Source: Halomonas sp. (GTDB taxonomy: Bacteria > Pseudomonadota > Gammaproteobacteria > Pseudomonadales > Halomonadaceae). From it: a stretch of DNA of 46,110 bases. A program made the translations under genes and the position numbers. Positions 21,559-32,887 of the stretch are shown here, one piece after another. The notes beneath the pieces were generated by a model that saw nothing but the letters and a program-made list of their open reading frames with translations, was not told the origin of the DNA and ran no database searches. Location: the NCBI RefSeq assembly GCF_017515565.1, contig NZ_JAFWFN010000065.1:1-46110 (forward strand), given 5' to 3'. Numbering within the stretch: the stretch's first letter is position 1; the number at the start of each line of letters is the position of its first letter.

Positions 21559-22659
21559 ATGAACCTGTTGACTGCACAGGCACCCGTCAGGGTGCCGCGC
21601 TCAGGTAAAGGGCTCGCCCTGGGCATTTGGCGCTTGGTGATGGTGGCGCTAGTACTGATGCTTAGCCTTGGGTTCACCCAGGTAGCGGTGGCCCAGGCGG
21701 AACCTGATCGCGAAATGAGAACCGCTGCCCCCGGCATTACGGCCGATCAGTGGCGCCAGGTGCGAAGTGGCGAGACGGATGCAAATTTCCGGGATTCTCG
21801 TCATGACAGCAACTACAACCTGATCAACGCCAGTGGTGAAACATGGCGGACTCTGCGCAACCGCTGGGTGTCGCCATTTGGCCTAATCGCTGTGTTTGGC
21901 ATGGTGGGCATTATCACGCTGTTCTATCTGATAATCGGCCGTAAGGAATTAGCAGAGCCGCGTACTGGCCGCAAGCTGTTCCGCTGGTCACTACTCATGC
22001 GCTCGTTGCACTGGACCGTGGCCACCCTGTTTATCACCTTGGCGCTGACCGGTTTAAACTTGCTGTACGGCAAGTTCGTATTCCGGTCGCTTTTCGGTGA
22101 TGCTTTTTGGGGGTGGATGATCTCGGCCTCGAAAGTTTTACATAACTACTTGGGGCCGCTATTTGGCATTCTGCTGGTTGTGCTACTAGTGAAGCTGCTT
22201 AAAGATAACATTCCCAAAAAGCACGACCTGCAGTGGTTCAAGCAGGGCGGTGGGCTTGTAGGGAAAGGCCATCCGGATGCAGGTTTCGCTAATGGCGGGG
22301 AAAAAGCCTGGTATTGGTTGCTGGCTACCGCAGGCATTGTGGTTGTTGCTAGTGGCTTTGTGCTCGACTTTCCTAACTACGGCCAAAGCCGTGACACCAT
22401 GCAGTGGGCGAATATTATCCATGCGGTGGGTGCCCTTGGCTTAACCGCAGTAGCGCTTGGCCATATCTACATTGGCACGGTGGGCACCGAAGGGTCGCTT
22501 GAAGCCATGACCACGGGTTACGTGGATGAAGCTTGGGCGAAAGAGCACCACAACCTTTGGTATGAAGAAGTGAAGGATCAAGCGATCTCGGAAGAGGAGG
22601 TTGCCGCTCGCAAGTCGGGTGACAGCAGCAGTGACGTTTCAGCTTCTCGACCTAGCTAG
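21559..22659 (+). CDS. fdhC: Formate dehydrogenase, cytochrome b556 (gamma) subunit
   Basis: A 366-residue membrane protein. It has an N-terminal signal-like segment ending near VAVAQA and a periplasmic stretch of about 55 residues. A membrane anchor follows, then the cytochrome b561-like core with histidines in RSLHWTVATLF, KVLHNYLGPLFG and IIHAVGALG. It should bind haem b and transfer electrons to quinone. I chose ATG at 21559 because GAGGAGG lies six bases upstream; a GTG at 21544 is less likely. The C-terminal tail is serine-rich. A strong terminator follows. Confidence 0.94.
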   Translation: MNLLTAQAPVRVPRSGKGLALGIWRLVMVALVLMLSLGFTQVAVAQAEPDREMRTAAPGITADQWRQVRSGETDANFRDSRHDSNYNLINASGETWRTLRNRWVSPFGLIAVFGMVGIITLFYLIIGRKELAEPRTGRKLFRWSLLMRSLHWTVATLFITLALTGLNLLYGKFVFRSLFGDAFWGWMISASKVLHNYLGPLFGILLVVLLVKLLKDNIPKKHDLQWFKQGGGLVGKGHPDAGFANGGEKAWYWLLATAGIVVVASGFVLDFPNYGQSRDTMQWANIIHAVGALGLTAVALGHIYIGTVGTEGSLEAMTTGYVDEAWAKEHHNLWYEEVKDQAISEEEVAARKSGDSSSDVSASRPS

Positions 22660-22680
22660 CGACGTAAAGTAATGCCCTTT

Positions 22681-22706
22681 GACACCGCCTACGGGCGGTG
22701 TCTTTT
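22681..22706 (+). terminator. Intrinsic terminator of the formate dehydrogenase operon
   Basis: GACACCGCC and GGCGGTGTC form a perfect 9-bp GC-rich stem with a TACG tetraloop, followed by TTTTG. It lies 21 bases after the fdhC stop codon. Confidence 0.88.
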
Positions 22707-22744
22707 GTTATGCTGCCCTAAACTCACTTTAAAGAGACATCAAC

Positions 22745-23071
22745 ATGGCAACATTTGACGAACTGGATACTACCGCGCGTACCGAGCTTGAAGCAGCCGC
22801 TTTTCGCCGCCTACTGAAGCATTTAGACGACAACAAAGACGTGCAAAATATCGACCTGATGATCCTGGCTGACTTCTGTCGCAACTGCCTTTCCAAGTGG
22901 CTGGTCACGGCAGCAGAGGAGCAGGGTACTTCGCTTGAGATGGAAGCCGCCCGAGAGTACGTGTATGGCATGCCCTATAGCGAGTGGAAAGAGCACTACC
23001 AAGGTAAGGCAACGCCCGAGCAGCTCGCTGCGCTAGAGGCGCGTCACGCTCAGAAGAAAACCCAGGAGTAG
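22745..23071 (+). CDS. DUF1244 family protein
   Basis: A 108-residue helical protein with the DUF1244 core: HLDDNKDVQNIDLMILADFCRNCLS in overlapping segments, and YGMPYSEWKEHYQ near the end. The conserved FCRNCL pair of cysteines is present. Function is unknown. It follows the formate dehydrogenase terminator and is three bases from moaB, so the two probably share a transcript. Confidence 0.85.
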   Translation: MATFDELDTTARTELEAAAFRRLLKHLDDNKDVQNIDLMILADFCRNCLSKWLVTAAEEQGTSLEMEAAREYVYGMPYSEWKEHYQGKATPEQLAALEARHAQKKTQE

Positions 23072-23074
23072 CCC

Positions 23075-23593
23075 ATGGAAAGCATGGTGGCGTTAAACGT
23101 AGCGGTGTTAACGGTGTCGGATACGCGCACGGAAGAGACCGATCGTTCGGGCCAATTCCTAATAGAGCGACTCACCGGTGCGGGCCATAACCTGGTTGAA
23201 AAGCGCATCGTGCAGGATGATGTGTATCAACTTCGCGCGGTGGTGGCCCAGTGGATCGCCGACCCAGCGGTTCAGGTGGTGATTACCACGGGGGGAACTG
23301 GCTTTACCGGGCGTGACTCCACCCCCGAAGCTATCTCGGTACTGCTGGATAAGCGCATCGAAGGCTTTGGTGAGCGCTTTCGCCAACTGAGTGGCGACGA
23401 GATCGGCAGCTCCACGATTCAAAGCCGCGCCTTGGGCGGGTTCGCCAACGCCACCGTGGTGTTCTGTTTGCCCGGTTCAACCGGCGCGTGCCGCACTGGC
23501 TGGGACGGCATTCTGGCCGAGCAGTTGGATAGCCGCCATAAGCCGTGCAATTTTGCCAACTTAGTGATTCCAGGCCGGGGGCAGCATGGCTGA
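23075..23593 (+). CDS. moaB: Molybdenum cofactor biosynthesis protein MoaB
   Basis: A 172-residue MoaB/Mog-type protein. The molybdopterin-binding motifs TTGGTGFTGRDSTPEA and CLPGSTGACRTGWD are intact. MoaB-type proteins adenylylate molybdopterin or assist that step before MoeA acts. AGGAG lies six bases before the ATG at 23075. The last 11 codons and the stop lie in a 37-bp repeat that recurs at 31233-31269 in front of the second moeA. Without the intervening island, the moaB stop would overlap the moeA start. Confidence 0.94.
   Translation: MESMVALNVAVLTVSDTRTEETDRSGQFLIERLTGAGHNLVEKRIVQDDVYQLRAVVAQWIADPAVQVVITTGGTGFTGRDSTPEAISVLLDKRIEGFGERFRQLSGDEIGSSTIQSRALGGFANATVVFCLPGSTGACRTGWDGILAEQLDSRHKPCNFANLVIPGRGQHG
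23557..23593 (+). repeat. Left 37-bp direct repeat (candidate attL) at the moaB 3' end
   Basis: The sequence begins CAACTTAGTG and ends CATGGCTGA. It is identical base for base to 31233-31269, and identity breaks on both sides. It encodes the moaB C-terminus and stop. It marks the left edge of the restriction-modification island. Confidence 0.92.
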
Positions 23594-23643
23594 AGGTGTG
23601 CTCTACTTATAATCTATGAGCAGTATGATACGGCTTTGCGAGA

Positions 23644-23670
23644 CACATGGCCTGCTTGGCAGGCCATGTG
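23644..23670. terminator. Perfect 12-bp hairpin inside the left island edge
   Basis: CACATGGCCTGC and GCAGGCCATGTG pair perfectly around a TTG loop. On the plus strand it is followed by ATGGCTTTTG, a weak T run. It may stop transcripts leaving moaB, or those arriving from hsdR on the other strand. A recombination-related palindrome is the alternative. Confidence 0.5.
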
Positions 23671-23699
23671 ATGGCTTTTGTCGTGAATCCGATAAATCT

Positions 23700-26087
23700 C
23701 TAATAGAGATTTTTTTGAAAATCCACAAATACGTCACGGATATTTCCTACTGAACCTAGTTCGCTCACCGCATCTCGGATGGTGTGATACTTCAACTCAA
23801 TCAGCAGCGGAAGTTTGTCAGGATCTAACTCTCCAACACCACGCTCCACGTAATGACCTAGAACAAAACGCAGGAATTCTTGCTGTTGATAGTCGTACTC
23901 ACGGAAAATCGCTTCCCGGTGTGAATCCACGCGTTCGGTGCGTGTGACGGGGGGATGATTAAATGCAATGTAAGCTAGCACGTCGTAAATATCGCTTTTG
24001 TCGGCCTCAATCATCTTGCCGACATCAAGTAATTGTTCGATGGAGTATCCCTTTTCTTCCAGGCTAGCCATCAACTTCTTCCGCGTATCTGGACTGCTCC
24101 ACAGTTCCCGTAGTTTGTCCTCATCAGAAAACCAAGCGGGTAGGTCGCCATAAAGGCGCTTTACGAACTCAGCGGCCGACATCGGCGTTCCGTCAGGACT
24201 CCAGAAACTGGTGGCGCTCATGTGCTGTAACGTGCGCTCCTTCCCATCGGCTAACTTAATTTTTACTTTTGTTTTTTTCTGACAGATACAGGGACTCTCG
24301 CCACATTCAGAGCATGGTTCAGTTGGCTCTTTCTTACACGTGCAGGGGCGTTCGCTGCACTCAGGGCATGGTGCCGGTGGTTCAACAGCACACTGGCAAG
24401 GAATTTGGCCGCATTCCTGACAAGGCTCTGGCGGTAGCGGCTCACCGTCCCACTCTGGGTCATTAAAGTGCTCATGAGCTCTGACAAAGTCGTAGATGGT
24501 GAAATAGTCTTTACCATCAAACAAACGCGTGCCGCGACCGATAATCTGTTTAAACTCAATCATTGAGTTTACCGGGCGCATCAACACTATATTGCGCACA
24601 TTGCGGGCATCTACGCCGGTCGAAAGCTTTTGTGATGTGGTCAGAATAGTAGGAATCGTCTTTTCGTTATCCTGAAACTGCTTTAGGAAGCGTTCGCCCT
24701 CAGCGCCGTCGTCAGCGGTGACGCGCTCGCAATAATGGGGATTATTACTGCTTTTCATTTGGTTGATCAGGTCACGAACCGCCAGCGCATGCTCCTGAGT
24801 GGTACAGAAGACGATGGACTTTTCACGCTGATTAATCTGCTCCATGAACAAACGAATACGATATTTCTCTCGGGCCTTGATTTCGATAACACGGTTAAAA
24901 TCCGTCTCGGTATATCGGCGACCCTTTTCTATCTCACCCTCAATAACTTCGTCATCACTGGTATAAACATAGTCATCTAACGTAGTCGCAATCTGCTTTA
25001 CCTTGAACGGGGTAAGATAACCGTCGTTAATGCCTTCTTTAAGTGAGTATACATATACAGGTTCACCAAAGTAGGCGTAGGTATCAGCGTTGTTATCACG
25101 CTTTGGCGTTGCTGTTAGCCCAAGTTGCACTGCTGGTTGGAAGTATTCCAGAATGCCTCGCCAGTTGCCTTCATCATTAGCACCACCCCGATGGCATTCG
25201 TCGATAATGATAAGATCGAAAAAGTCCGGAGGGTAATCACCAAAATGGGGTGCCGACCCACCATCTTCATCGCGGCCCGTCATAAACGTCTGGAAAATAG
25301 TGAAAAAGATGCTGCCGTTCTTGGGCACACGGCCTTTTTTGCGGATAGTGTCTGGATCGATACGCACTAAAGCATCTGGAGGAAAGGCCGAAAAGTCATT
25401 GAAAGCTTGGTTGGCGAGGATGTTGCGATCAGCCAAAAATAGAATACGCGGCCTGCGTCCTGTCTCGCCTGTCTCCTGGGCAGCAAGACTCCACCGGGAG
25501 TGAAATAGCTTCCAAGCAATCTGAAAAGCAATAGCCGTTTTGCCTGTTCCAGTGGCAAGGGTTAGCAGAATCCGGCGTTGGTCATGAGAAATCGCTTCCA
25601 ATGCCTGGGTAATCGCGTTGTGCTGATAGTAACGTGGTTGCCAGAACCCACCCTTATCTTCGAAGGGAACGGCACCAAAGCGCTCGCGCCAGGCATTCTG
25701 TTCAGCGAAGGTCTCCGCCCAGAGCGCTTCCGTTGTGGGGTAGCTATACACCAAGCCCTCTTCACCGGAGTAGAGGTCTACACGGTAAATACCCTCTCCA
25801 TTAGTGCTGTAGGCAAAGCGGGCCTGAAGGCGTTCGGCGTAGCGCTTTGCCTGGGCAAGACCTTCTGTTACCGGCAGCGCGCGCTTTTTGGCCTCAATCA
25901 CCGCTAACTTCTGGCCTTTATAGGTCAGCACATAGTCAGCAATATCCGAAGGGCCTCGGCGGCCACCGCCTTGCAGTCGCCCTGGAGCAATCACCTCGCG
26001 CCGAACCCGGCTGGCATCAACCACACCCCAGCCAGCGGATTTCAGCGCCGGATCAATCAGTTCTGCTCGGGTTTCTGCCTCGTTCAT
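23700..26087 (-). CDS. hsdR: Type I restriction endonuclease subunit R (HsdR)
   Basis: A 795-residue restriction and translocation subunit. The N-terminal nuclease domain shows Asp51 and the Glu65-x-Lys67 pair (AVIEAKK). The helicase part has a P-loop TLATGTGKTAIAF near 177-189, a DEAD-box-like IIIDECHRGG, and QIIGRGTRL in the second RecA-like domain. HsdR translocates DNA and cuts it far from the unmethylated target when bound to HsdM and HsdS. Oddity: residues about 553-604 hold three copies of an 18-residue unit, each PC-x-EC-x3-PC-x-C, twelve cysteines in all. This suggests zinc knuckles between the helicase and the C-terminal region. AGGAAG precedes the ATG. It lies 156 bases after the Schlafen-like gene. 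Confidence 0.95.
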   Translation of the reverse strand: MNEAETRAELIDPALKSAGWGVVDASRVRREVIAPGRLQGGGRRGPSDIADYVLTYKGQKLAVIEAKKRALPVTEGLAQAKRYAERLQARFAYSTNGEGIYRVDLYSGEEGLVYSYPTTEALWAETFAEQNAWRERFGAVPFEDKGGFWQPRYYQHNAITQALEAISHDQRRILLTLATGTGKTAIAFQIAWKLFHSRWSLAAQETGETGRRPRILFLADRNILANQAFNDFSAFPPDALVRIDPDTIRKKGRVPKNGSIFFTIFQTFMTGRDEDGGSAPHFGDYPPDFFDLIIIDECHRGGANDEGNWRGILEYFQPAVQLGLTATPKRDNNADTYAYFGEPVYVYSLKEGINDGYLTPFKVKQIATTLDDYVYTSDDEVIEGEIEKGRRYTETDFNRVIEIKAREKYRIRLFMEQINQREKSIVFCTTQEHALAVRDLINQMKSSNNPHYCERVTADDGAEGERFLKQFQDNEKTIPTILTTSQKLSTGVDARNVRNIVLMRPVNSMIEFKQIIGRGTRLFDGKDYFTIYDFVRAHEHFNDPEWDGEPLPPEPCQECGQIPCQCAVEPPAPCPECSERPCTCKKEPTEPCSECGESPCICQKKTKVKIKLADGKERTLQHMSATSFWSPDGTPMSAAEFVKRLYGDLPAWFSDEDKLRELWSSPDTRKKLMASLEEKGYSIEQLLDVGKMIEADKSDIYDVLAYIAFNHPPVTRTERVDSHREAIFREYDYQQQEFLRFVLGHYVERGVGELDPDKLPLLIELKYHTIRDAVSELGSVGNIRDVFVDFQKNLY

Positions 26088-26124
26088 AGGCTTCCTGCTA
26101 GTTTGATGGCCTTGGCTGAAGACG

Positions 26125-26145
26125 GAATCAAGAATGAATCAAGAA
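26125..26145. repeat. Tandem 11-bp direct repeat upstream of hsdR
   Basis: GAATCAAGAA occurs at 26125-26134 and 26136-26145, a period of 11 bases or about one helical turn. It lies 40-60 bases upstream of the hsdR start. It may be a regulator site. The evidence is positional only. Confidence 0.35.
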
Positions 26146-26153
26146 AATATGCC

Positions 26154-26211
26154 GCCGTTAAAATATTAAATTATTGATTTATAATGTTTTTATAAGAAGT
26201 GACTTAACGGC
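26154..26211. repeat. 8-bp inverted repeat enclosing a 42-bp AT-rich segment upstream of hsdR
   Basis: GCCGTTAA (26154-26161) and TTAACGGC (26204-26211) are perfect inverted copies around a very AT-rich spacer containing several TATAAT-like hexamers. The spacer may hold a separate hsdR promoter. No -35 element is clear. Confidence 0.35.
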
Positions 26212-26243
26212 TGGCAGTGTGAAATCAAAACCCGATCAAGAAA

Positions 26244-27698
26244 TCAGGCCCACCAGGGAACGTAGCCGGCTCTCGGGTGCTCGGAATCTGCTTCTCTAAT
26301 CAGATTCGCTTCTTTTGCCTTCTTGATAACAACAGAGGCTTGTGACGCATTCCTACTTTCAATACCGAATCGCTCACACAGTGTTGCGTTTTTCATGCGC
26401 TCGCCGGTTAAAAATTTAAGAACTGCATGGTGATAACATGCCCGTGTGCGCTCTTCTGGGGTCATCTGGGCAAAGTTTCGCGGCCCATAAAGTACCACCT
26501 GCATGGCATTACCTTCTTCCCGAAACAGCGGTGGTGGCAACTGGAACATTTCAACGGAAGCGATCACTTTATCTAAGCCGCTGCCCTGCTCTTCACACAT
26601 GCCCATCCGGCGCATCAGTGAAGCCAGCGCTTCATTTCGTGAACGGGGCGGGAGGTCAATCATTCGGTCAGCGGGCACCAACGGCTTACCGGGATTAGTT
26701 ATCTCCATGCGATCCTGAAAAACCTCAACCTGTGGGCCAGCTCCGGAGATAGTCATGTCTTGATGAATCAGCGCATTGGCGATCACTTCACGAACCGCGA
26801 TAGTAGGAAATAGCGGCTCTTCGGTGCGCAGCGCTACATCAATATGCTCATTTTTAGGCAGGATACCGTTAATAAATTCAATGAGCCCTTCAAAGCCCAC
26901 TGCATAGCCTTTCTTACCTTCAACCCGATGGCTGACCTGAGCCGCTCGATTTTTGCCTGCATAGGCAGTAAAGCGAACGGCCTTACGGGCTAAAGCACTA
27001 TCAAACTGGGTAAGGTCAGAAGCAAAAAGAATGGCACCCAGATGGGTGATGTTCCAGCGTTCACCGACATCCTGCTGAATCAAACGTTCGGCCGCTAATT
27101 TATCGAAAATTCCCCGTCGATTATCCGGCAGTGGCTGCTTCGTAAGTTTGAAGTAATTGCTGTAATCAAGCAGATCCAAGACTTCATCGCCACTAACATA
27201 CTGACGAGCTATCGCATGCTCCCAGGTATAGGGGCGCAGCCGCTCAATTAACTGTTGATAGCGCTCCGGGTAATCCGTCAGTTTAGGTGTTGCACTGCCA
27301 ATGCGAATGTAGGGGATGTTTTTGAAAGCAACTGGCGCAGAGGTAGCTGCCGGTATCTCCAGAATCACCACGTTGCCACCCGGATGCTCGACCCGCCTAA
27401 ATTGGAACGCGATGCTAGGCTGTAACTCTCGAGCCAGCCAAAAGGCTAGTTCTTGCCCATTGGATTTCTGGGTATCTGGGTTGAAACTTGAACCGATGAC
27501 TTGAAGTGAGGCGTCGTCAATGCCCCAGAGCATATAGGCGATATCTTTGCCCACAAGGCGAGCGGCATTAGCCAGTGCAGAACAGCGAACGCCGATCATG
27601 CTGGGTTCAACATTATCTTTCTTGAACTCCAGCCAGTCTGTTTCTGCACCTTGAGCTAGCAGCTCGTTGACCAGGTCAATATCGCGTTGCTGGCTCAT
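26244..27698 (-). CDS. Schlafen AlbA_2 / RecG-like ATP-binding protein in the R-M operon
   Basis: A 484-residue protein with an N-terminal AlbA_2 (Schlafen) domain, about residues 8-150. TDWLEFKKDN holds the Glu-x-Lys typical of that fold, and DIAYMLWGIDD follows. A middle region resembles the GHKL ATPase-like segment of this family (VREVIANALIHQDM, then FQDRMEITNPG and GSGLDKVIASVEMF). The C-terminus has a winged-helix-like segment (FGIESRNASQASVVIKKAKE). Such proteins are annotated as RecG-like or putative transcriptional regulators and are often found inside type I restriction operons. Their role is not settled. The gene overlaps the hsdS end by four bases, so it is translationally coupled to it. 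Confidence 0.85.
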   Translation of the reverse strand: MSQQRDIDLVNELLAQGAETDWLEFKKDNVEPSMIGVRCSALANAARLVGKDIAYMLWGIDDASLQVIGSSFNPDTQKSNGQELAFWLARELQPSIAFQFRRVEHPGGNVVILEIPAATSAPVAFKNIPYIRIGSATPKLTDYPERYQQLIERLRPYTWEHAIARQYVSGDEVLDLLDYSNYFKLTKQPLPDNRRGIFDKLAAERLIQQDVGERWNITHLGAILFASDLTQFDSALARKAVRFTAYAGKNRAAQVSHRVEGKKGYAVGFEGLIEFINGILPKNEHIDVALRTEEPLFPTIAVREVIANALIHQDMTISGAGPQVEVFQDRMEITNPGKPLVPADRMIDLPPRSRNEALASLMRRMGMCEEQGSGLDKVIASVEMFQLPPPLFREEGNAMQVVLYGPRNFAQMTPEERTRACYHHAVLKFLTGERMKNATLCERFGIESRNASQASVVIKKAKEANLIREADSEHPRAGYVPWWA

Positions 27699-29575
27699 AG
27701 GGCAAGACTCTCTTGCCCAGTCACACGTTTACCGCGCCCTCGGGGTTCCAAGCCATTGTGGCGTAGCTGAGAAATGGCAATGCGGAATTGCTCCTCTGAA
27801 TACTTAAGCTTATCAGCATGCCAGTTTTCACGCGCTTCGTGAATGATGGCGTGCTCTGTAGGCTCAATACCTTCAAGGAGCAAGTTGTTCCATGCCGCAT
27901 AGACCGTCGCTAGAACTTCCGTTTCTGCGGTATTGAGTGGCATGAGTACCTTAATCACGCGCTTCAATACGTGCTCATACGGCGCCAGGGCTTGCATGGC
28001 TTCTGCAACCAGTTCCCCATAACGCGCGCCTTTTCTAAAATCGAAGCCTCGCTGTGCAGTAGGGCGCTTAACAAACTCAAAAAAGCCATGGTCTTTGGCC
28101 CAGTCTTCTGCTCGTTGCATATGTTGAAAATCATTGGGGCCAGCGGCATCTTTAATCGGCTGACGCCCCAGGTCGATATCCGCCAGTGACTCCACCAAAT
28201 GAAGCGTTTTCTGTGCCTTAACCCGACCAAAGGTCTTTCCGCGATGCTCTGAAGCATGCCAGTGATAAGCGGCTGCCATAATATGAGCAGCAAATTCTGG
28301 AGAGTTGGTTTCTATCAGGGTCGTCGGCTGTTTTTGTTTAGTGATCTCAACCACATTATTAGCGGTGAGCTCCCCAGAAAAGGCTTTTTTAAGAAGGGAT
28401 TGTTTTAGCTCTTTTAATACCATGAGTTTTTGTTGATAGATATCTTCTAGACGACAAGTTTCAGCACTTACTTCATCAAGCTTGGTAATAACTTCACTCT
28501 GTTCTTTAAGTGAAATATCAGGAGCCTGAAATCCACGTAGAGCTTTTAAGGAAACGGTTTTTTGTGCGGTTCCAGTGGCCTTTTCAAGTGCTTGGTTCTT
28601 AATTTGCGGAGATAATAGTAAGTAATACATCCACTTGCTATTAACAGAATTTTTAGGCCTCACTAAACCGATATGGCGTTGAAAACAAAAGAGTGCATCG
28701 CCATCAACCATTACGGAGATGCCGAAAGAGCCAGTAACGGTGTACAAAATATCACCTTTTATTGGCTTGCGATTATTTTTCAAGTTATTAAAATATTCAA
28801 GGCTCACTCGGAAGGCGTTATCAAAATCAATTTCTTTTGTTTTTTTGTTTATGTTTTTTATTGTAATAAAAGGAATGCCCGATGCACTTTTCGGTGGCGG
28901 CATATGATCGCCATCAGTAATATCAGATGCTAATTCAGACAGCGTAACAACATTATTGGATAAGTAAGCAGTGTTGAATGCTGAATGCAAGTGGCTCTCA
29001 AATAACTCCTTAATATTAGCAAGGTTCTGCTCGGTGTTGGCAATAGCTGCATCAATGCTCGTAAAGGCTTCGTCGAGAATGGCGACGATGTGCTTTTGCT
29101 CAGCGAGTGTCGGAAGTGGGATAGAGTGCTTCTCGATAAACTCTTTTGAAACACGCTTATGCCCAACAGCCCCTGACATCACCCTTTCGCCTGCATCCCG
29201 AAAACTGTTCTGCGCCAGGTAATAAAACAAAAACTCAGGATCTAGACTGTCTTTCGTACGAAAAACAATAAATTCACTTGAGCCAAACCCGATGCCGTTC
29301 GTGAGTCCACGCGCAATTCCTAGTTTTCCATTCTCAAAGCATGGCGTAATCTTCGCTAGCAGTACATCACCATCGGCAAAGTAAGTATAACTACCAGAAA
29401 CCTTCTCTAAGGCTTTCTCTTCCACTGGTGAAAAATATTTCTCTCTTATACCGAGGGCATTCATCGGTACAAAAGAAACCAAGTCTGTTTTTCTTAGTTG
29501 CTCTTGGGCCTCTTTTTTAGGAGGTTTTATCTTGCATGCCTCGCTTAGAGGAACGTAAGTCCAGGTTTCTTTCAT
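27695..29575 (-). CDS. hsdS: Type I restriction specificity subunit HsdS with C-terminal extension
   Basis: A 626-residue protein, longer than the usual 400-450. Two target recognition domains are visible. The first ends in the conserved IPLPTLAEQKHIVAILDEAF helix and the second in SLKEQSEVITKLDEVSAE and LKQSLLKKAFSGEL. These set DNA sequence specificity for both methylation and cutting. Residues about 404-626 (27698-28366) form an extra domain with FGRVKAQKTLHLVE and DAAGPNDFQHM. By eye it resembles the Panacea/SocA antitoxin-like fold that some HsdS proteins carry; this is inference. It overlaps hsdM and the Schlafen-like gene by four bases each. Base composition is the most AT-rich of the island, as often seen for exchanged recognition domains. 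Confidence 0.92.
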   Translation of the reverse strand: MKETWTYVPLSEACKIKPPKKEAQEQLRKTDLVSFVPMNALGIREKYFSPVEEKALEKVSGSYTYFADGDVLLAKITPCFENGKLGIARGLTNGIGFGSSEFIVFRTKDSLDPEFLFYYLAQNSFRDAGERVMSGAVGHKRVSKEFIEKHSIPLPTLAEQKHIVAILDEAFTSIDAAIANTEQNLANIKELFESHLHSAFNTAYLSNNVVTLSELASDITDGDHMPPPKSASGIPFITIKNINKKTKEIDFDNAFRVSLEYFNNLKNNRKPIKGDILYTVTGSFGISVMVDGDALFCFQRHIGLVRPKNSVNSKWMYYLLLSPQIKNQALEKATGTAQKTVSLKALRGFQAPDISLKEQSEVITKLDEVSAETCRLEDIYQQKLMVLKELKQSLLKKAFSGELTANNVVEITKQKQPTTLIETNSPEFAAHIMAAAYHWHASEHRGKTFGRVKAQKTLHLVESLADIDLGRQPIKDAAGPNDFQHMQRAEDWAKDHGFFEFVKRPTAQRGFDFRKGARYGELVAEAMQALAPYEHVLKRVIKVLMPLNTAETEVLATVYAAWNNLLLEGIEPTEHAIIHEARENWHADKLKYSEEQFRIAISQLRHNGLEPRGRGKRVTGQESLAL

Positions 29576-31047
29576 AACAGCCCCCGAATCCCTTCCAGAA
29601 TGGCCTCGCTTTCTTTATCCAACGTCTCAATCTCGTTGATGATGACTTCTGGATCGCGAAGCGGTGCCTCATCGGCTTTGTTTGGGTTCTTCACCGACAA
29701 ATCGAAAGTAGTGGTATCGATATCGTCGATACTCACCGTCCATGATTGATCAGAATCCGCAAAACTAGCTTGGCGGGCGACAAAGTCCTTGAGGTCATCA
29801 TCATTCAGCGGGTTGGTTTTGCCCAGGCTACGGCCTGGCTCTAGCTGGTAATACCAAATGTTGTGCGTGGGTGCGCCTTTCTCGAAAAACAGCACAACGG
29901 TTTTTACCCCTGCCCCCAGAAAGGTGCCGCCGGGACAATCCAGAATGGTGTGCAGGTTGCAGCTTTCCAGCAGCTCTTTACGCAGTGCTTTTGAGGCGTT
30001 GTCCGCGTTAGACAAAAAGGTGTTTTTAATGACCACCGCCCCACGACCGCCAGCACGCAAATACTTAATGAAGTGCTGCATAAACAGGAACGCGGTTTCC
30101 CCGGTTTTAATAGGGAAATTCTGCTGTATTTCCTTACGCTCTTTGCCGCCGAAAGGCGGGTTAGCAAGGATAACGTCAAAGCGGTCTTTCTCCTGAATAT
30201 CATTCAGGTTTTCAGTCAGGCTATTGGTATGAACGATATTGGGCGTTTCAATACCGTGCAGGATCATGTTCATGATACCAATCACGTACGGCAGGCTCTT
30301 TTTCTCTTTACCGTAAAAGGTGCGGGACTGAAGAATATCAAGATCCGATGTGGAGAGACGTTTGCCGTCCTGCTCGCCTTCTGGCCCGTAGCGGAGGTAA
30401 TCGTGGGCTTCGCATAAAAAGCCTGCCGACCCAACAGCAGCGTCGTATATACGCTCGCCAATCTGCGGATCAACCACCTTGATCATGGCGCGGATCAGCG
30501 GGCGTGGGGTGTAATACTCTCCGCCGTTACGCCCAGCATTGCCCATATTCTTGATTTTGGCTTCGTACAGATGGGAGAGCTCATGCTTCTGAGCCTGAGA
30601 GCCAAAGCTGAGTTCATCCACCAGCTCTAGGGCATCGCGCAGGCTGTAACCACTAGCGAATTTATTGCGGATCTCGCCAAAAATTTCGCCAATTTTGTAT
30701 TCAATCGTGTCACTGCTCGTCGCGCGCTCTTTGAAACCATGCAAATAGGGGAAGAGTTCAAAACTGACGTATTGAATCAGGTCATCGCCAGTTAGCGCAT
30801 TGTCATGGTCAAAGCTACCGTCCTCTTTTTTTGGTGCTGCCCAGCGTGACCAACGATGCTCTTCGTCGATAATGAACTCGTAGGCTTGGCCGCGCAGTTC
30901 GGCCTCTTGTGAGCGCTCGAACTCCAGGTCGTCGAGGTACTTCAGGAACAGCATCCAGGATGTTTGCTCGGTGTAGTCCAGTTCGCTGGCGCAACCAGCC
31001 TCTTTCCAAAGGACGTTATCGATGTTTCTGAAGGTTTGTTCAAACAT
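29572..31047 (-). CDS. hsdM: Type I restriction methyltransferase subunit HsdM
   Basis: A 491-residue N6-adenine methyltransferase. It has an HsdM N-terminal helical domain, then GGEYYTPRPLIRAMI, an AdoMet-binding segment YDAAVGSAGFLCEA (about 201-214) and the catalytic NPPF at 296-299. With HsdS it methylates adenines in the recognition site and protects host DNA. It is the first gene of the island operon, so the promoter should lie in the roughly 150 bases before it, shared divergently with the minicistron and moeA. Confidence 0.95.
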   Translation of the reverse strand: MFEQTFRNIDNVLWKEAGCASELDYTEQTSWMLFLKYLDDLEFERSQEAELRGQAYEFIIDEEHRWSRWAAPKKEDGSFDHDNALTGDDLIQYVSFELFPYLHGFKERATSSDTIEYKIGEIFGEIRNKFASGYSLRDALELVDELSFGSQAQKHELSHLYEAKIKNMGNAGRNGGEYYTPRPLIRAMIKVVDPQIGERIYDAAVGSAGFLCEAHDYLRYGPEGEQDGKRLSTSDLDILQSRTFYGKEKKSLPYVIGIMNMILHGIETPNIVHTNSLTENLNDIQEKDRFDVILANPPFGGKERKEIQQNFPIKTGETAFLFMQHFIKYLRAGGRGAVVIKNTFLSNADNASKALRKELLESCNLHTILDCPGGTFLGAGVKTVVLFFEKGAPTHNIWYYQLEPGRSLGKTNPLNDDDLKDFVARQASFADSDQSWTVSIDDIDTTTFDLSVKNPNKADEAPLRDPEVIINEIETLDKESEAILEGIRGLL

Positions 31048-31197
31048 GTAGATTCCGGTGGTATCAAAGTGCCTATTGATGAAAGTAAGTAAGACGCCAA
31101 CAGGCTGTTTCTGTCCGTTGATCGTGGCATTCTACCTATACCGGTTATCTAATTCTTGGGTTTCACGACTCTGGTTTTCCTGTTTTTAGAGGCGACT

Positions 31198-31269
31198 ATG
31201 CCATCAGTTCTTAATTCTCAGTGCATGCTTAACAACTTAGTGATTCCAGGCCGGGGGCAGCATGGCTGA
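31198..31269 (+). CDS. 23-codon minicistron that rebuilds the moaB tail before moeA
   Basis: The ORF starts at ATG 31198 with AGAGG five bases upstream. It begins MPSVLNSQ and ends NNLVIPGRGQHG, the last 11 residues being the C-terminus of MoaB in the same frame. It stops with TGA at 31267-31269, inside an ATGGCTGA that also contains the moeA start. This recreates the stop/start overlap that moaB would have had with moeA. The first twelve codons come from island DNA. The peptide itself may have no function. Translational coupling to moeA is the likely purpose, and is inference. Confidence 0.55.
   Translation: MPSVLNSQCMLNNLVIPGRGQHG
31233..31269 (+). repeat. Right 37-bp direct repeat (candidate attR) at the moeA start
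   Basis: Identical to 23557-23593. This copy holds the moeA ribosome site (CCGGGGGC) and start codon and marks the right edge of the island. Confidence 0.92.
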
Positions 31270-32467
31270 TTTACAGCCGATCGAAACAGCCCTTGAAGCG
31301 CTGCTGGCAGGGGTGGTGCCGCTGGAAGCTGAGCCGGTGCCGCTGGTTCAGGCGGCGGGCCGCGTGCTGGCCGATGTTGTTTATGCGCAGTTGGATGTGC
31401 CGCCGTTTGATAATAGCGCCATGGATGGCTACGCCCTGCGCGCCGCTGATGCGGGGCAGTGGCTGCCGGTGAGTCAGCGCATTGCGGCGGGCACGCAGGC
31501 TCAAGCGCTTGCGCCTGGAAGCTGCGCGCGTATTTTTACCGGCGGTGAGATCCCGGCTGGGGCGGACTGCGTGGTGATGCAAGAGCGCGTAGAGGTTGAC
31601 GGCGAGCGCGCACTGATGCCCGCGGATATTCCAGCGGGAGATAATGTGCGCCGTCAGGGACGCGACGTGAAAAGTGGCTCTTTGCTGCTAAATGCAGGTG
31701 AGCGGTTGGAAGCTGCTGCATTGGGTCATTTGGCTGGGCAAGGCGTCACCGACGTGAGCGTACGCCGTCGGCCCCGCGTGGCGTTACTCTCAACCGGCGA
31801 TGAGATTATTGACCCCGGTAAGCCGTTAAAGCCCGGTCAGCTCTATAACTCAAACCGGCCAATGCTCAAGCGCCTGTTAGAAAACTTTGGGGCTGACGTT
31901 GTGCAGCTGGTTAGCGTACCGGATGACTACGCTCAAACCGTTGAGCTATTACGCCAAGCAGCGGCAGAAGCTGACGTAGTGATTAGTACCGGCGGCGTAA
32001 GCGTGGGTGAAGAGGATCATGTCAAAGCCGCGCTGGAATCGCTGGGCCAGCTCGATATGTGGAAGCTGGCGATTCGCCCTGGCAAGCCGCTGGCGCTGGG
32101 CCGTTTGCCCCGCGAAGATGGCAGCCAAGCACGTTTTGTAGGGCTGCCGGGGAACCCAGTATCTAGTTTTGTGGGGGCATGGCTTTTTTTGCGCCCACTA
32201 ATGGGCGCACTACTTGGCTGCCCTGCTTTAAAAGCTCTGCCCAATATGACTGCCAGCGCTGGTTTTGCTACCTCAACCGGCCCCCGCGAACACTATATGC
32301 GCGTGACGCTAACGTTCACACCCAACGGTGTGACGGCGGCGGCATTTGATGACCAGAACTCGGGGGTGCTCTCGTCGTGTATCAACGCCGATGCCTTAGC
32401 GGTGATCCCGCCTAATAGCGAAATAGCTAAGGGCGATGAGATCCGCTGTTTATGGTTGATGAGTTAG
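31262..32467 (+). CDS. moeA: Molybdopterin molybdenumtransferase MoeA (second copy)
   Basis: A 401-residue MoeA with NSAMDGYALRA, LLSTGDEIIDPGKPL, STGGVSVGEEDHV, RPGKPLALG and GLPGNPVSSFV. It is closer to the classical MoeA pattern than the copy at 11258-12511, and the two differ over most of their length. The ATG and its ribosome site lie in the 37-bp repeat. Before the island arrived the gene would have been the third in a DUF1244-moaB-moeA operon. It now depends on whatever promoter the island edge provides. It faces the chemosensory operon convergently, with 12 bases between stops. Confidence 0.95.
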   Translation: MADLQPIETALEALLAGVVPLEAEPVPLVQAAGRVLADVVYAQLDVPPFDNSAMDGYALRAADAGQWLPVSQRIAAGTQAQALAPGSCARIFTGGEIPAGADCVVMQERVEVDGERALMPADIPAGDNVRRQGRDVKSGSLLLNAGERLEAAALGHLAGQGVTDVSVRRRPRVALLSTGDEIIDPGKPLKPGQLYNSNRPMLKRLLENFGADVVQLVSVPDDYAQTVELLRQAAAEADVVISTGGVSVGEEDHVKAALESLGQLDMWKLAIRPGKPLALGRLPREDGSQARFVGLPGNPVSSFVGAWLFLRPLMGALLGCPALKALPNMTASAGFATSTGPREHYMRVTLTFTPNGVTAAAFDDQNSGVLSSCINADALAVIPPNSEIAKGDEIRCLWLMS

Positions 32468-32479
32468 GGGTTGAGAAGG

Positions 32480-32887
32480 CTAAGGAGTAAGCTTGTGCGC
32501 GTCCAGTAGCAGCACGAGTTGCTGTTGTTCAAACGTGAAGCCGCACAGCGCCATTGAAAATCGTCGGGAACGCAGCAGCTTAGGCAGCGGGTAAAGCGTG
32601 TTGGCAGGCAGTTGCCGAAGGGTAATGTCGCCGCTTACGCCCAGCTGCCAAGTGCTGTTTTTTTCGCTCTTTACTTGAGCGTCGCGCAGGGTTAGCCAGC
32701 GGCTAGGCGGCGTCGGTTGGTTGCGTTCTTCATAGAGCAACGAGTGAGCGCTGGCGCTGCGCAATGCCGTCGGTTGATCGGTCATGGCGAGTACATGACA
32801 CGCTTCCAGGGCAGCACGGTAAGGCCCTACGCGAAACAGCACCATCGCCACCTTGGCTTGCTCGTAATGATCTCGATGCTGAGGCAC
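32480..32887 (-). CDS. CheW-like protein, short and divergent
   Basis: The last gene of the chemosensory operon, 135 residues from a GTG at 32887 just after the CheW stop. An AAGGG about ten bases upstream supports this start. The N-terminus (MVLFRVGPYRAALEACHVLAM) and C-terminus (GFTFEQQQLVLLLDAHKL) look like the first and last strands of a CheW fold, while the middle is shorter and weakly conserved. Wsp systems contain two CheW-type couplers (WspB and WspD), and this could be the second. A decayed copy is the alternative. Confidence 0.65.
   Translation of the reverse strand: MPQHRDHYEQAKVAMVLFRVGPYRAALEACHVLAMTDQPTALRSASAHSLLYEERNQPTPPSRWLTLRDAQVKSEKNSTWQLGVSGDITLRQLPANTLYPLPKLLRSRRFSMALCGFTFEQQQLVLLLDAHKLTP

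What the first reader, a model, noticed from the sequence alone, without database searches (positions are those of the whole stretch)
23557..31269. R-M island bounded by a perfect 37-bp direct repeat of the moaB/moeA junction, with no recombinase inside
The copies at 23557-23593 and 31233-31269 are identical and diverge immediately outside. Together they reconstruct one moaB-moeA junction, so 7,676 bp (island plus one repeat) appears to have been added without disrupting either gene. This is the footprint of site-specific integration in a conserved coding end rather than in a tRNA gene. None of the four island genes resembles an integrase, transposase or relaxase. The island may move using a recombinase in trans, may have lost its own, or may exchange by homologous recombination through the repeats.
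Basis: partly seen in the sequence, partly recalled or inferred. Interest (0 to 1): 0.78.

Follow-up and report, generated by a model that had tools for sequence, protein, structure and literature searches.

The report
Gene-cargo slot between moaB and moeA
A salt-loving bacterium carries defence genes wedged between two overlapping cofactor genes, and the short repeat that looks like an integration scar is more likely the copied overlap that lets the downstream gene still be translated; related bacteria use the same slot for quite different genes.

Summary
A perfect 37-bp direct repeat flanks a 7.6-kb type I R-M island in which no recombinase was found. The nearest relative compared lacks the island, and a strain pair with flanks about 99.5% identical differs by a clean insertion with an exact 37-bp duplication. 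Across 82 genomes of the genus (taken to be Vreelandella) the moaB-moeA junction is a hotspot: 9 occupied, 69 empty, 3 unresolved, 1 not readable. Cargo differs: two type I R-M sets, a lone SLFN/AlbA_2 gene, a TRAP transporter with degradative HMG-CoA reductase, small inserts. In 7 of 9 the right end is the same module (~95 bp) plus a leader that, in 6 of these 7, runs in frame through the copied moaB tail and stops on the TGA overlapping moeA's ATG. I read the repeat as the duplicated moaB/moeA overlap, kept because it holds moeA's start and coupled stop, rather than simply an att core. Promoter and coupling are inferred. Transfer is most likely by homologous recombination in the flanks: clear in one genome, absent in two. 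Closest precedent: R-M 'insertion with long target duplication'. A sister genus carries tandem coupled moaB-tail mini-ORFs here.

The parts
23075..23593 (+). moaB (172 aa), left flank; its last 37 bp are the left repeat copy
   Evidence: ORF; Pfam PF00994
23557..23593 (+). left copy of the 37-bp direct repeat (moaB codons for NLVIPGRGQHG plus stop)
23644..23670 (+). terminator-like hairpin at the left end, 12-bp stem; similar palindromes near the left ends of G037 and G057
   Evidence: (10 sites against 9.3 in shuffles, so no excess), alignment
23700..26087 (-). hsdR, EcoAI/FtnUII family type I restriction subunit (795 aa)
   Evidence: NCBIfam NF046051 809 bits, cutoff 550; Pfam
26244..27698 (-). 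SLFN_AlbA_2 / HATPase_c_4 protein (484 aa)
   Evidence: Pfam; in 3 of 82 genus genomes at E <= 1e-50, all at this junction
27695..29575 (-). hsdS specificity subunit (626 aa, with a C-terminal extension)
   Evidence: Pfam PF01420; PADLOC
29572..31047 (-). hsdM N6 methyltransferase (491 aa)
   Evidence: Pfam PF02384; PADLOC
31104..31197 (+). right-end module shared by islands with unrelated cargo; presumed promoter and ribosome-binding site for the leader and moeA (inferred)
   Evidence: at this junction in 7 of 82 genus genomes
31198..31269 (+). leader ORF of 23 codons from ATGCCA (MPSVLNSQCMLNNLVIPGRGQHG*), in frame with the duplicated moaB tail, stop overlapping moeA's ATG; a TTG 14 codons further up is also in frame
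   Evidence: choice of start is mine
31233..31269 (+). right copy of the 37-bp direct repeat, holding the moeA start region
31262..32467 (+). moeA (401 aa), right flank
   Evidence: ORF; Pfam

Best explanation
The moaB-moeA junction of this genus is an integrase-free cargo slot. In most empty genomes moeA's start codon lies inside the last codons of moaB (ATGGCTGA), so moeA probably depends on ribosomes finishing moaB. An insertion that harms neither gene must duplicate this overlap. The islands do so, and their right end supplies a conserved ~95-bp module (presumed promoter plus ribosome-binding site) and a short leader ORF. The leader runs in frame into the duplicated moaB tail and stops on the TGA that overlaps moeA's ATG. 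The 37-bp repeat is thus first of all a coupling device kept by selection. Cargo (R-M, AlbA_2, TRAP/HMG-CoA reductase) is gained, swapped and lost mainly by homologous recombination in moaB on the left and in the module or moeA on the right; recombination between the repeats would restore a perfect empty site. Shown: repeat, empty sites, hotspot, different cargo with one right end, in-frame leader, horizontal transfer of islands, no recombinase found. Inferred: promoter activity, translational coupling, homologous recombination as the general route.
For: (1) Junction state in 82 genus genomes: 9 occupied, 69 empty, 3 unresolved, 1 not readable. (2) The right-end module was found by DNA search in 8 of 82 genomes: 7 at this junction, and one weak 46-nt hit elsewhere in G015. 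It precedes moeA beside hsdM (opposite strand), AlbA_2 (opposite strand) or HMG-CoA reductase (same strand), so it looks tied to moeA rather than to one cargo. (3) An ORF ending exactly on the moeA-overlapping TGA is present in 8 of 9 occupied genomes. From the homologous ATGCCA the leader is in frame in 7 of 8 genomes (23 codons in five, 28 in G032, 22 in G068; G031 out of frame). G040, with an unrelated IS-derived right end, also has one, but there a chance ORF was not tested against. In the five 23-codon leaders, codons 2-12 vary freely (4 synonymous, 62 nonsynonymous codon differences over pairs): the frame is kept, not the peptide. (4) G068 and G040 share only 22 and 20 bp, around moeA's start (reading). 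(5) Islands are exchanged between species: G028/G031/G075 are mostly 95-99% identical inside, 82-93% in moeA. (6) In G031 the first 600 nt of moeA differ from G059 at 86/600 sites, the rest at 16/590 (Fisher p 1.2e-13), while G059 and G010 agree at 95% over that 5' part. (7) In G075 the two repeat copies differ at 7 of 37 positions; its right copy is nearer to G028's (3 differences, by reading), which suggests that it came with the island.
Against: No expression data: promoter and coupling are inferred; the sigma-70 scan found 7 sites against 7.7 in shuffles and none at the module. The flank signature is strong in 1 of 6 tested occupied genomes (G031), weak in G028 (p 0.004), G075 (0.003) and G057 (0.05), absent in G037 and G000; p values are uncorrected, the nearest genome was picked by the 3' half, which favours a contrast, and empty genomes (G077, G003, G043) show milder switches. 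On the moaB side the contrast is small: 90-99% outside the G028/G031/G075 islands. In G000/G057 hsdR is 76-84% identical, only a little above the flanks. G037/G038 show only background divergence (0.76% over 17.8 kb, 0.65% over 19.6 kb) and no foreign tract at the island. Both copies equal the relative's sequence in G000 and G037, which a true target duplication would also give. The same breakpoint in different cargo classes would also fit a site-specific enzyme. The leader start is my choice: the earliest in-frame start lies further up in G000, G037, G057, G032 and G068. The G031 leader is out of frame (1-bp deletion; that assembly has other broken ORFs).
Confidence: 0.58

Rival explanations
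1. Site-specific integration. The 37 bp is an att core used by a tyrosine or serine recombinase acting in trans (helper phage, plasmid or ICE) or lost from the islands. The leader is the element's way of restoring expression of the gene it splits, as dusA islands are proposed to do.
For: Same breakpoint with different cargo; clean insertion without foreign flanks in G037/G038 and no flank switch in G000/G050; dusA islands re-supply a gene end by means of an integrase (passages).
Against: No such recombinase seen at any of 9 occupied sites, as far as ORFs were scanned or read; the right copies are not a fixed core; G068 and G040 share only the moeA start region; the module pattern hit only 4 loci in genome contigs, all four contigs of genus genomes already found (records near the window's genome may be left out there).
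Confidence: 0.23
2. Insertion with long target duplication, as proposed for R-M systems in Helicobacter pylori. Each island inserts by an unknown event that copies tens of base pairs of the target, so both copies are host DNA at birth.
For: Copies identical in G000 and G037 (0 of 37 differences) and nearly so in G057 and G028 (1 of 37), matching relatives' tails in G000, G037 and, for the left copy, G028; R-M cargo; precedent seen in passages.
Against: Non-R-M cargo uses the same end; one shared right module argues for a single founder rather than repeated fresh insertion; copies in G075 and G031 differ from each other.
Confidence: 0.16

Closest known systems
Insertion with long target duplication of R-M genes (Nobusato et al. 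2000, not read; known here through passages in PMC3031569, PMC1643837, PMC3874152 and PMC4978471)
   Same: R-M island, direct duplication of target against an empty allele in relatives, no recombinase
   Different: 37 bp at one recurrent site, where the passages speak of variable lengths of the order of 100 bp; it spans a gene overlap and is fused in frame to a leader ORF; non-R-M cargo uses the same end
[quoted passage not shown] 2017, PMC5635113, passages seen)
   Same: One locus, many cargos, mobility genes absent or only IS, recombination tract in a flanking core gene in G031
   Different: Here the element end carries a specific module that appears to keep the downstream gene's start and coupling; the recombination signal is strong in one genome only
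dusA-associated genomic islands (PMC4482086, passages seen)
   Same: Insertion at a housekeeping gene end with direct repeats; the element re-supplies what the split gene needs
   Different: Those are linked to a dedicated integrase and semiconserved 21-bp attachment sequences; no integrase was found here
EcoAI/FtnUII-family type I R-M system
   Same: HsdR passes the NCBIfam cutoff (809 against 550 bits); HsdM and HsdS present
   Different: Carries an SLFN_AlbA_2 gene and an HsdS C-terminal extension; activity untested
Coupled short upstream ORFs (for example iraD, PMC5574718; title and start of abstract seen only)
   Same: A short ORF whose translation controls the next gene
   Different: Here the short ORF is partly made of a duplicated end of the former upstream gene

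Membership tests
Integrase-borne site-specific genomic island | Encodes a tyrosine or serine recombinase | tested here: not met
   4 of 4 large window island ORFs have other assignments; scanned ORFs of G040 (8), G068 (1), G028 (8) and G037 (1): only IS transposases; G057, G031, G075 and G032 not scanned, ORFs read
Integrase-borne site-specific genomic island | Flanking direct repeats against an empty site | tested here: met
Integrase-borne site-specific genomic island | Element-borne core conserved between elements | tested here: inconclusive
   right copies differ between elements; equal to the left copy in G000 and G037, 7 of 37 different in G075
Integrase-borne site-specific genomic island | Excised circle or reconstituted attP | not testable with these tools
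   needs PCR or reads
Insertion with long target duplication | R-M genes inserted with a long direct duplication of the target, absent in the empty allele | tested here: met
   37 bp, empty allele in G050 (window island) and G038 (AlbA_2-only island of G037)
Insertion with long target duplication | Duplication copied afresh from the host at each insertion | tested here: inconclusive
   copies identical in G000 and G037, 1 of 37 different in G057 and G028, 7 of 37 in G075
Hotspot exchanged by flanking homologous recombination | Different cargo at one core-gene junction | tested here: met
Hotspot exchanged by flanking homologous recombination | Recombination tracts in the flanking core genes of occupied genomes | tested here: inconclusive
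   G031 strong; G028, G075, G057 weak; G000, G037 none; empty genomes show some too
Type I R-M, EcoAI/FtnUII family | HsdR above the curated cutoff, with HsdM and HsdS | tested here: met
Coupled leader ORF | ORF whose stop overlaps the start of the next gene | tested here: met
   8 of 9 occupied genomes; G031 out of frame
Coupled leader ORF | moeA translation falls when the leader is not translated | not testable with these tools
   needs a reporter assay

The most novel reading that the evidence does not exclude
The element end is a portable coupling cassette: promoter, ribosome-binding site and a start codon that adopts the last codons of moaB, so any cargo can sit inside a translationally coupled gene pair without loss. 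Duplicated gene overlaps would then be a general reason why R-M and other integrase-free islands show long target duplications. The tandem moaB-tail mini-ORF arrays of the sister genus would be the cargo-free version of the same slot.
Probability: 0.33. Interest if true: 0.72.

Novelty: new variant of a known kind. Interest (0 to 1): 0.52.

Why it matters
Direct repeats at island ends are usually read as attachment sites. Here the repeat is better explained by selection on overlapping genes: an insertion between coupled genes survives only if it copies the overlap and supplies a new upstream ORF. If general, this would account for recombinase-free islands with 'long target duplications', long noted for R-M genes, and it gives a testable rule for where such islands can land.

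Tried and rejected
Att-site reading: weakened as above, not excluded. Rfam search of 22600-32500: one chance-level hit, nothing at the module. Sigma-70 and terminator scans: no excess over shuffles. Vector search: the AlbA_2 protein has relatives below 60% identity on 64 plasmid records; one viral contig encodes a 61% relative and 11 encode HsdM relatives of 59-75%; no near vector was found and these loci were not studied further. Near-identity search of plasmids: one record, Halomonas sp. PA16-9, matching moeA only; its junction carries the right module (78%) and the left end seen in the TRAP-type islands, 6.2 kb apart; its cargo was not read. A foreign tract around the G037 island was sought and not found.

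Literature: searches listed no paper on this junction by title or start of abstract. These cover an open-access library only, and most lists were cut (for example 12 of 100, 12 of 1,334, 15 of 4,214). One listed Halomonas genome paper naming moeA (PMC12226641) was checked by passages and names moeA only in a gene list. Furuta 2010 was not held; Nobusato 2000 was not read. PMC3120642 was looked at by passages without use.

Limits: one genome per species. G020, G039 and G081 are unresolved (moeA not found in the fetched stretch of about 10 kb downstream). G058 has moaB at a contig edge and was not fetched. Searches used only the 61 of 82 genomes that matched the first tail pattern, so a nearer relative could be missed; one search used the 59 of these with 1190 nt of moeA, compared ungapped, 6 of them occupied. 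The tail pattern itself fixes the amino acids VIP..GQH, so synonymous-only variation in pattern-found tails is partly forced by the search; occupied sites were called from moaB-moeA distance, not from the pattern. One search compared 5 of 9 leaders, those with 23 codons and an intact tail. Outside the genus, 20 of 193 family genomes had their junction fetched (15 with repeated tails, 5 others). The tail pattern matched 182 of 275 family genomes and its list of places was cut.

Full report
Observation. The window is the whole of contig C83 of an 86-contig, 3.76-Mb genome. The 37-bp copies at 23557-23593 and 31233-31269 are identical, 7676 bp apart, and unique in the assembly within 3 mismatches. 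Between them (7639 bp) lie, all on the minus strand, hsdR (EcoAI/FtnUII family), an SLFN_AlbA_2/HATPase_c_4 gene, hsdS and hsdM. No mobility gene was found among them.

Empty sites and hotspot. I therefore take the genus to be Vreelandella. moaB was found in 82 of 82 genus genomes. From tblastn and the junction sequences: in 60 the moeA alignment starts inside the last codons of moaB, and in 9 more a start codon at the moaB stop opens a frame of at least 300 codons, giving 69 empty; 9 are occupied (G000, G028, G031, G032, G037, G040, G057, G068, G075); in 3 no moeA was found in the roughly 10 kb fetched downstream (G020, G039, G081); G058 is cut at a contig edge. G050, nearest to the window by moaB among the 61 genomes compared (95.1% nt), is empty. 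G037 and G038 are 99.8% and 99.4% identical in the immediate flanks, and G037 has 1945 bp more, with an exact 37-bp duplication.

Cargo. G057 has the same R-M set as the window. Windows in its AlbA_2 and hsdM genes are mostly 85-96% identical to the window's and hsdR windows 76-84%, against 68-77% in moaB and moeA; hsdS recognition regions are about 45-56%. G037 has only the AlbA_2 gene. G028, G031 and G075 have a MocR-type regulator, a TRAP transporter and a degradative HMG-CoA reductase (ORFs; families scanned for G028); the G028 copy is split by an IS. G040 has a different type I R-M set (HsdR with an EcoR124_C domain), a BRO-N protein, a helicase and an AAA protein, and ends in an rve-type IS gene. 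G032 (571 bp) and G068 (1.2 kb, one 178-aa ORF without a family) are small. The AlbA_2 protein occurs in 3 of 82 genomes at E <= 1e-50, each time here.

The right end. The stretch before moeA aligns across unrelated cargo. A DNA search found it in 8 of 82 genomes: 7 at this junction and a weak 46-nt match elsewhere in G015. G068 shows a weaker likeness in the alignment only, and G040 none. The conserved parts are GCTGTTTCTG...TTGATCGTGGCATTCTA and TTTTTAGAG...ATGCCA. From ATGCCA an ORF runs in frame into the duplicated moaB tail and stops on the TGA whose neighbouring ATG is moeA's start. It is 23 codons in G000, G028, G037, G057 and G075, 28 in G032, 22 in G068. In five of these seven a further in-frame start lies upstream; I prefer ATGCCA because it is conserved and preceded by a purine-rich stretch. 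G040, with an unrelated right end, also has an ORF ending there, which could be chance. G031 has a 1-bp deletion and is out of frame; its island ORFs are broken elsewhere too. In the five 23-codon leaders, codons 2-12 differ mostly nonsynonymously (62 of 66 codon differences over pairs), so the peptide seems free while the frame is kept; the tail differs mostly synonymously (39 of 43), as expected of a copy of moaB. G068 and G040 share only 22 and 20 bp with their moaB end, around moeA's start and the purine-rich stretch before it, and in G032 the longest shared stretch is 9 nt although the frame is kept (reading).

Reading. moaB's end and moeA's start overlap, so an insertion that leaves both intact must copy the overlap. 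To keep a coupled start for moeA, it must also supply an ORF ending there. Occupied sites do this in 8 of 9 cases. I therefore read the repeat first as a duplicated gene overlap joined to a substitute upstream ORF. That the module is a promoter and that coupling matters are inferences; the promoter scan gave no support. Overlapping stop and start codons are reported to allow translational coupling by termination-reinitiation (PMC6728339, title and start of abstract).

Movement. Islands pass between species: in three pairwise comparisons of G028, G031 and G075, identity inside is mostly 95-99% and falls to 82-93% in moeA; on the moaB side it is 90-99%, so the contrast there is small. In G031 the foreign tract enters moeA: 86 of 600 differences from G059 in the first 600 nt against 16 of 590 after, while G059 and G010 agree at 95% over that first part and 91-95% after it. 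This is a homologous-recombination signature. G000 and G037 show none, G028, G075 and G057 weak ones, and some empty genomes show milder switches; the nearest genome was chosen by the 3' half, which favours such contrasts. G037/G038 show background divergence over 17.8 and 19.6 kb on the two sides, with three SNPs clustered 57-69 bp from the moaB end and none from there to 1932. Repeat copies within one genome differ at 0 (G000, G037), 1 (G057, G028) and 7 (G075) of 37 positions; G031 has two substitutions and a deletion. Homologous recombination mostly from conspecific donors explains this mixture; fresh target duplication or a trans-acting recombinase is not excluded.

What is known. R-M insertion with long target duplication, hotspots exchanged by recombination in flanking core genes, and islands that re-supply the end of the gene they split are described (passages). 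The combination here, a duplicated gene overlap joined in frame to a conserved leader and shared by unrelated cargo, did not appear in the listings, most of which were cut.

Sister genus. A wider tail pattern found 15 of 90 genomes of genus g8 with 2-5 tail copies at this junction, mostly 85-94 bp apart. In these 15 the stretches between copies read as mini-ORFs of 30-33 codons, each stop overlapping the next start, with an end like HKPCNSLYVQANLVIPERGQHG; two genomes (L106, L110) have a further unit with a diverged tail. The amino acids of the last part are partly imposed by the search pattern. This is another case of moaB-tail duplication that keeps the coupled arrangement, without cargo.

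Noticed in passing
L096-L110 (15 of 90 genomes of genus g8, Halomonadaceae): Tandem arrays of 1-4 moaB-tail-like mini-ORFs of 30-33 codons between moaB and moeA, each stop overlapping the next start, with an end like HKPCNSLYVQANLVIPERGQHG.
   Followed up: partly
window 24279-24425 (inside hsdR, minus strand): HsdR residues 555-603 hold three cysteine-rich repeats of the type PCxECxxxPCxC, perhaps metal-binding; also in the G057 protein.
   Followed up: no
window 27722-28306 (C-terminal part of hsdS, minus strand): HsdS has an extra C-terminal region of about 195 residues matched by PADLOC model PDLC03088.
   Followed up: no
window about 28400-29500 against L035: hsdS recognition regions of G000 and G057 are about 45-56% identical while neighbouring segments are about 85-96%: a specificity swap within otherwise shared islands.
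   Followed up: partly
L033 10328-11508: An IS with HTH_Tnp_1 and rve proteins splits the TRAP large permease gene of the G028 island.
   Followed up: no
L033, L059, L065: A TRAP transporter, MocR-like regulator and degradative HMG-CoA reductase form a transferred set, perhaps for mevalonate use.
   Followed up: no
L034 and L124 against L126: G037 and G038 moaB differ by three SNPs within 13 bp just upstream of the repeat and by none over the next 1.86 kb, an odd local pattern next to the insertion.
   Followed up: partly
L072, L076, L086: In G020, G039 and G081 no moeA was found in the roughly 10 kb fetched downstream of moaB; whether these are larger islands or operon breaks is open.
   Followed up: no
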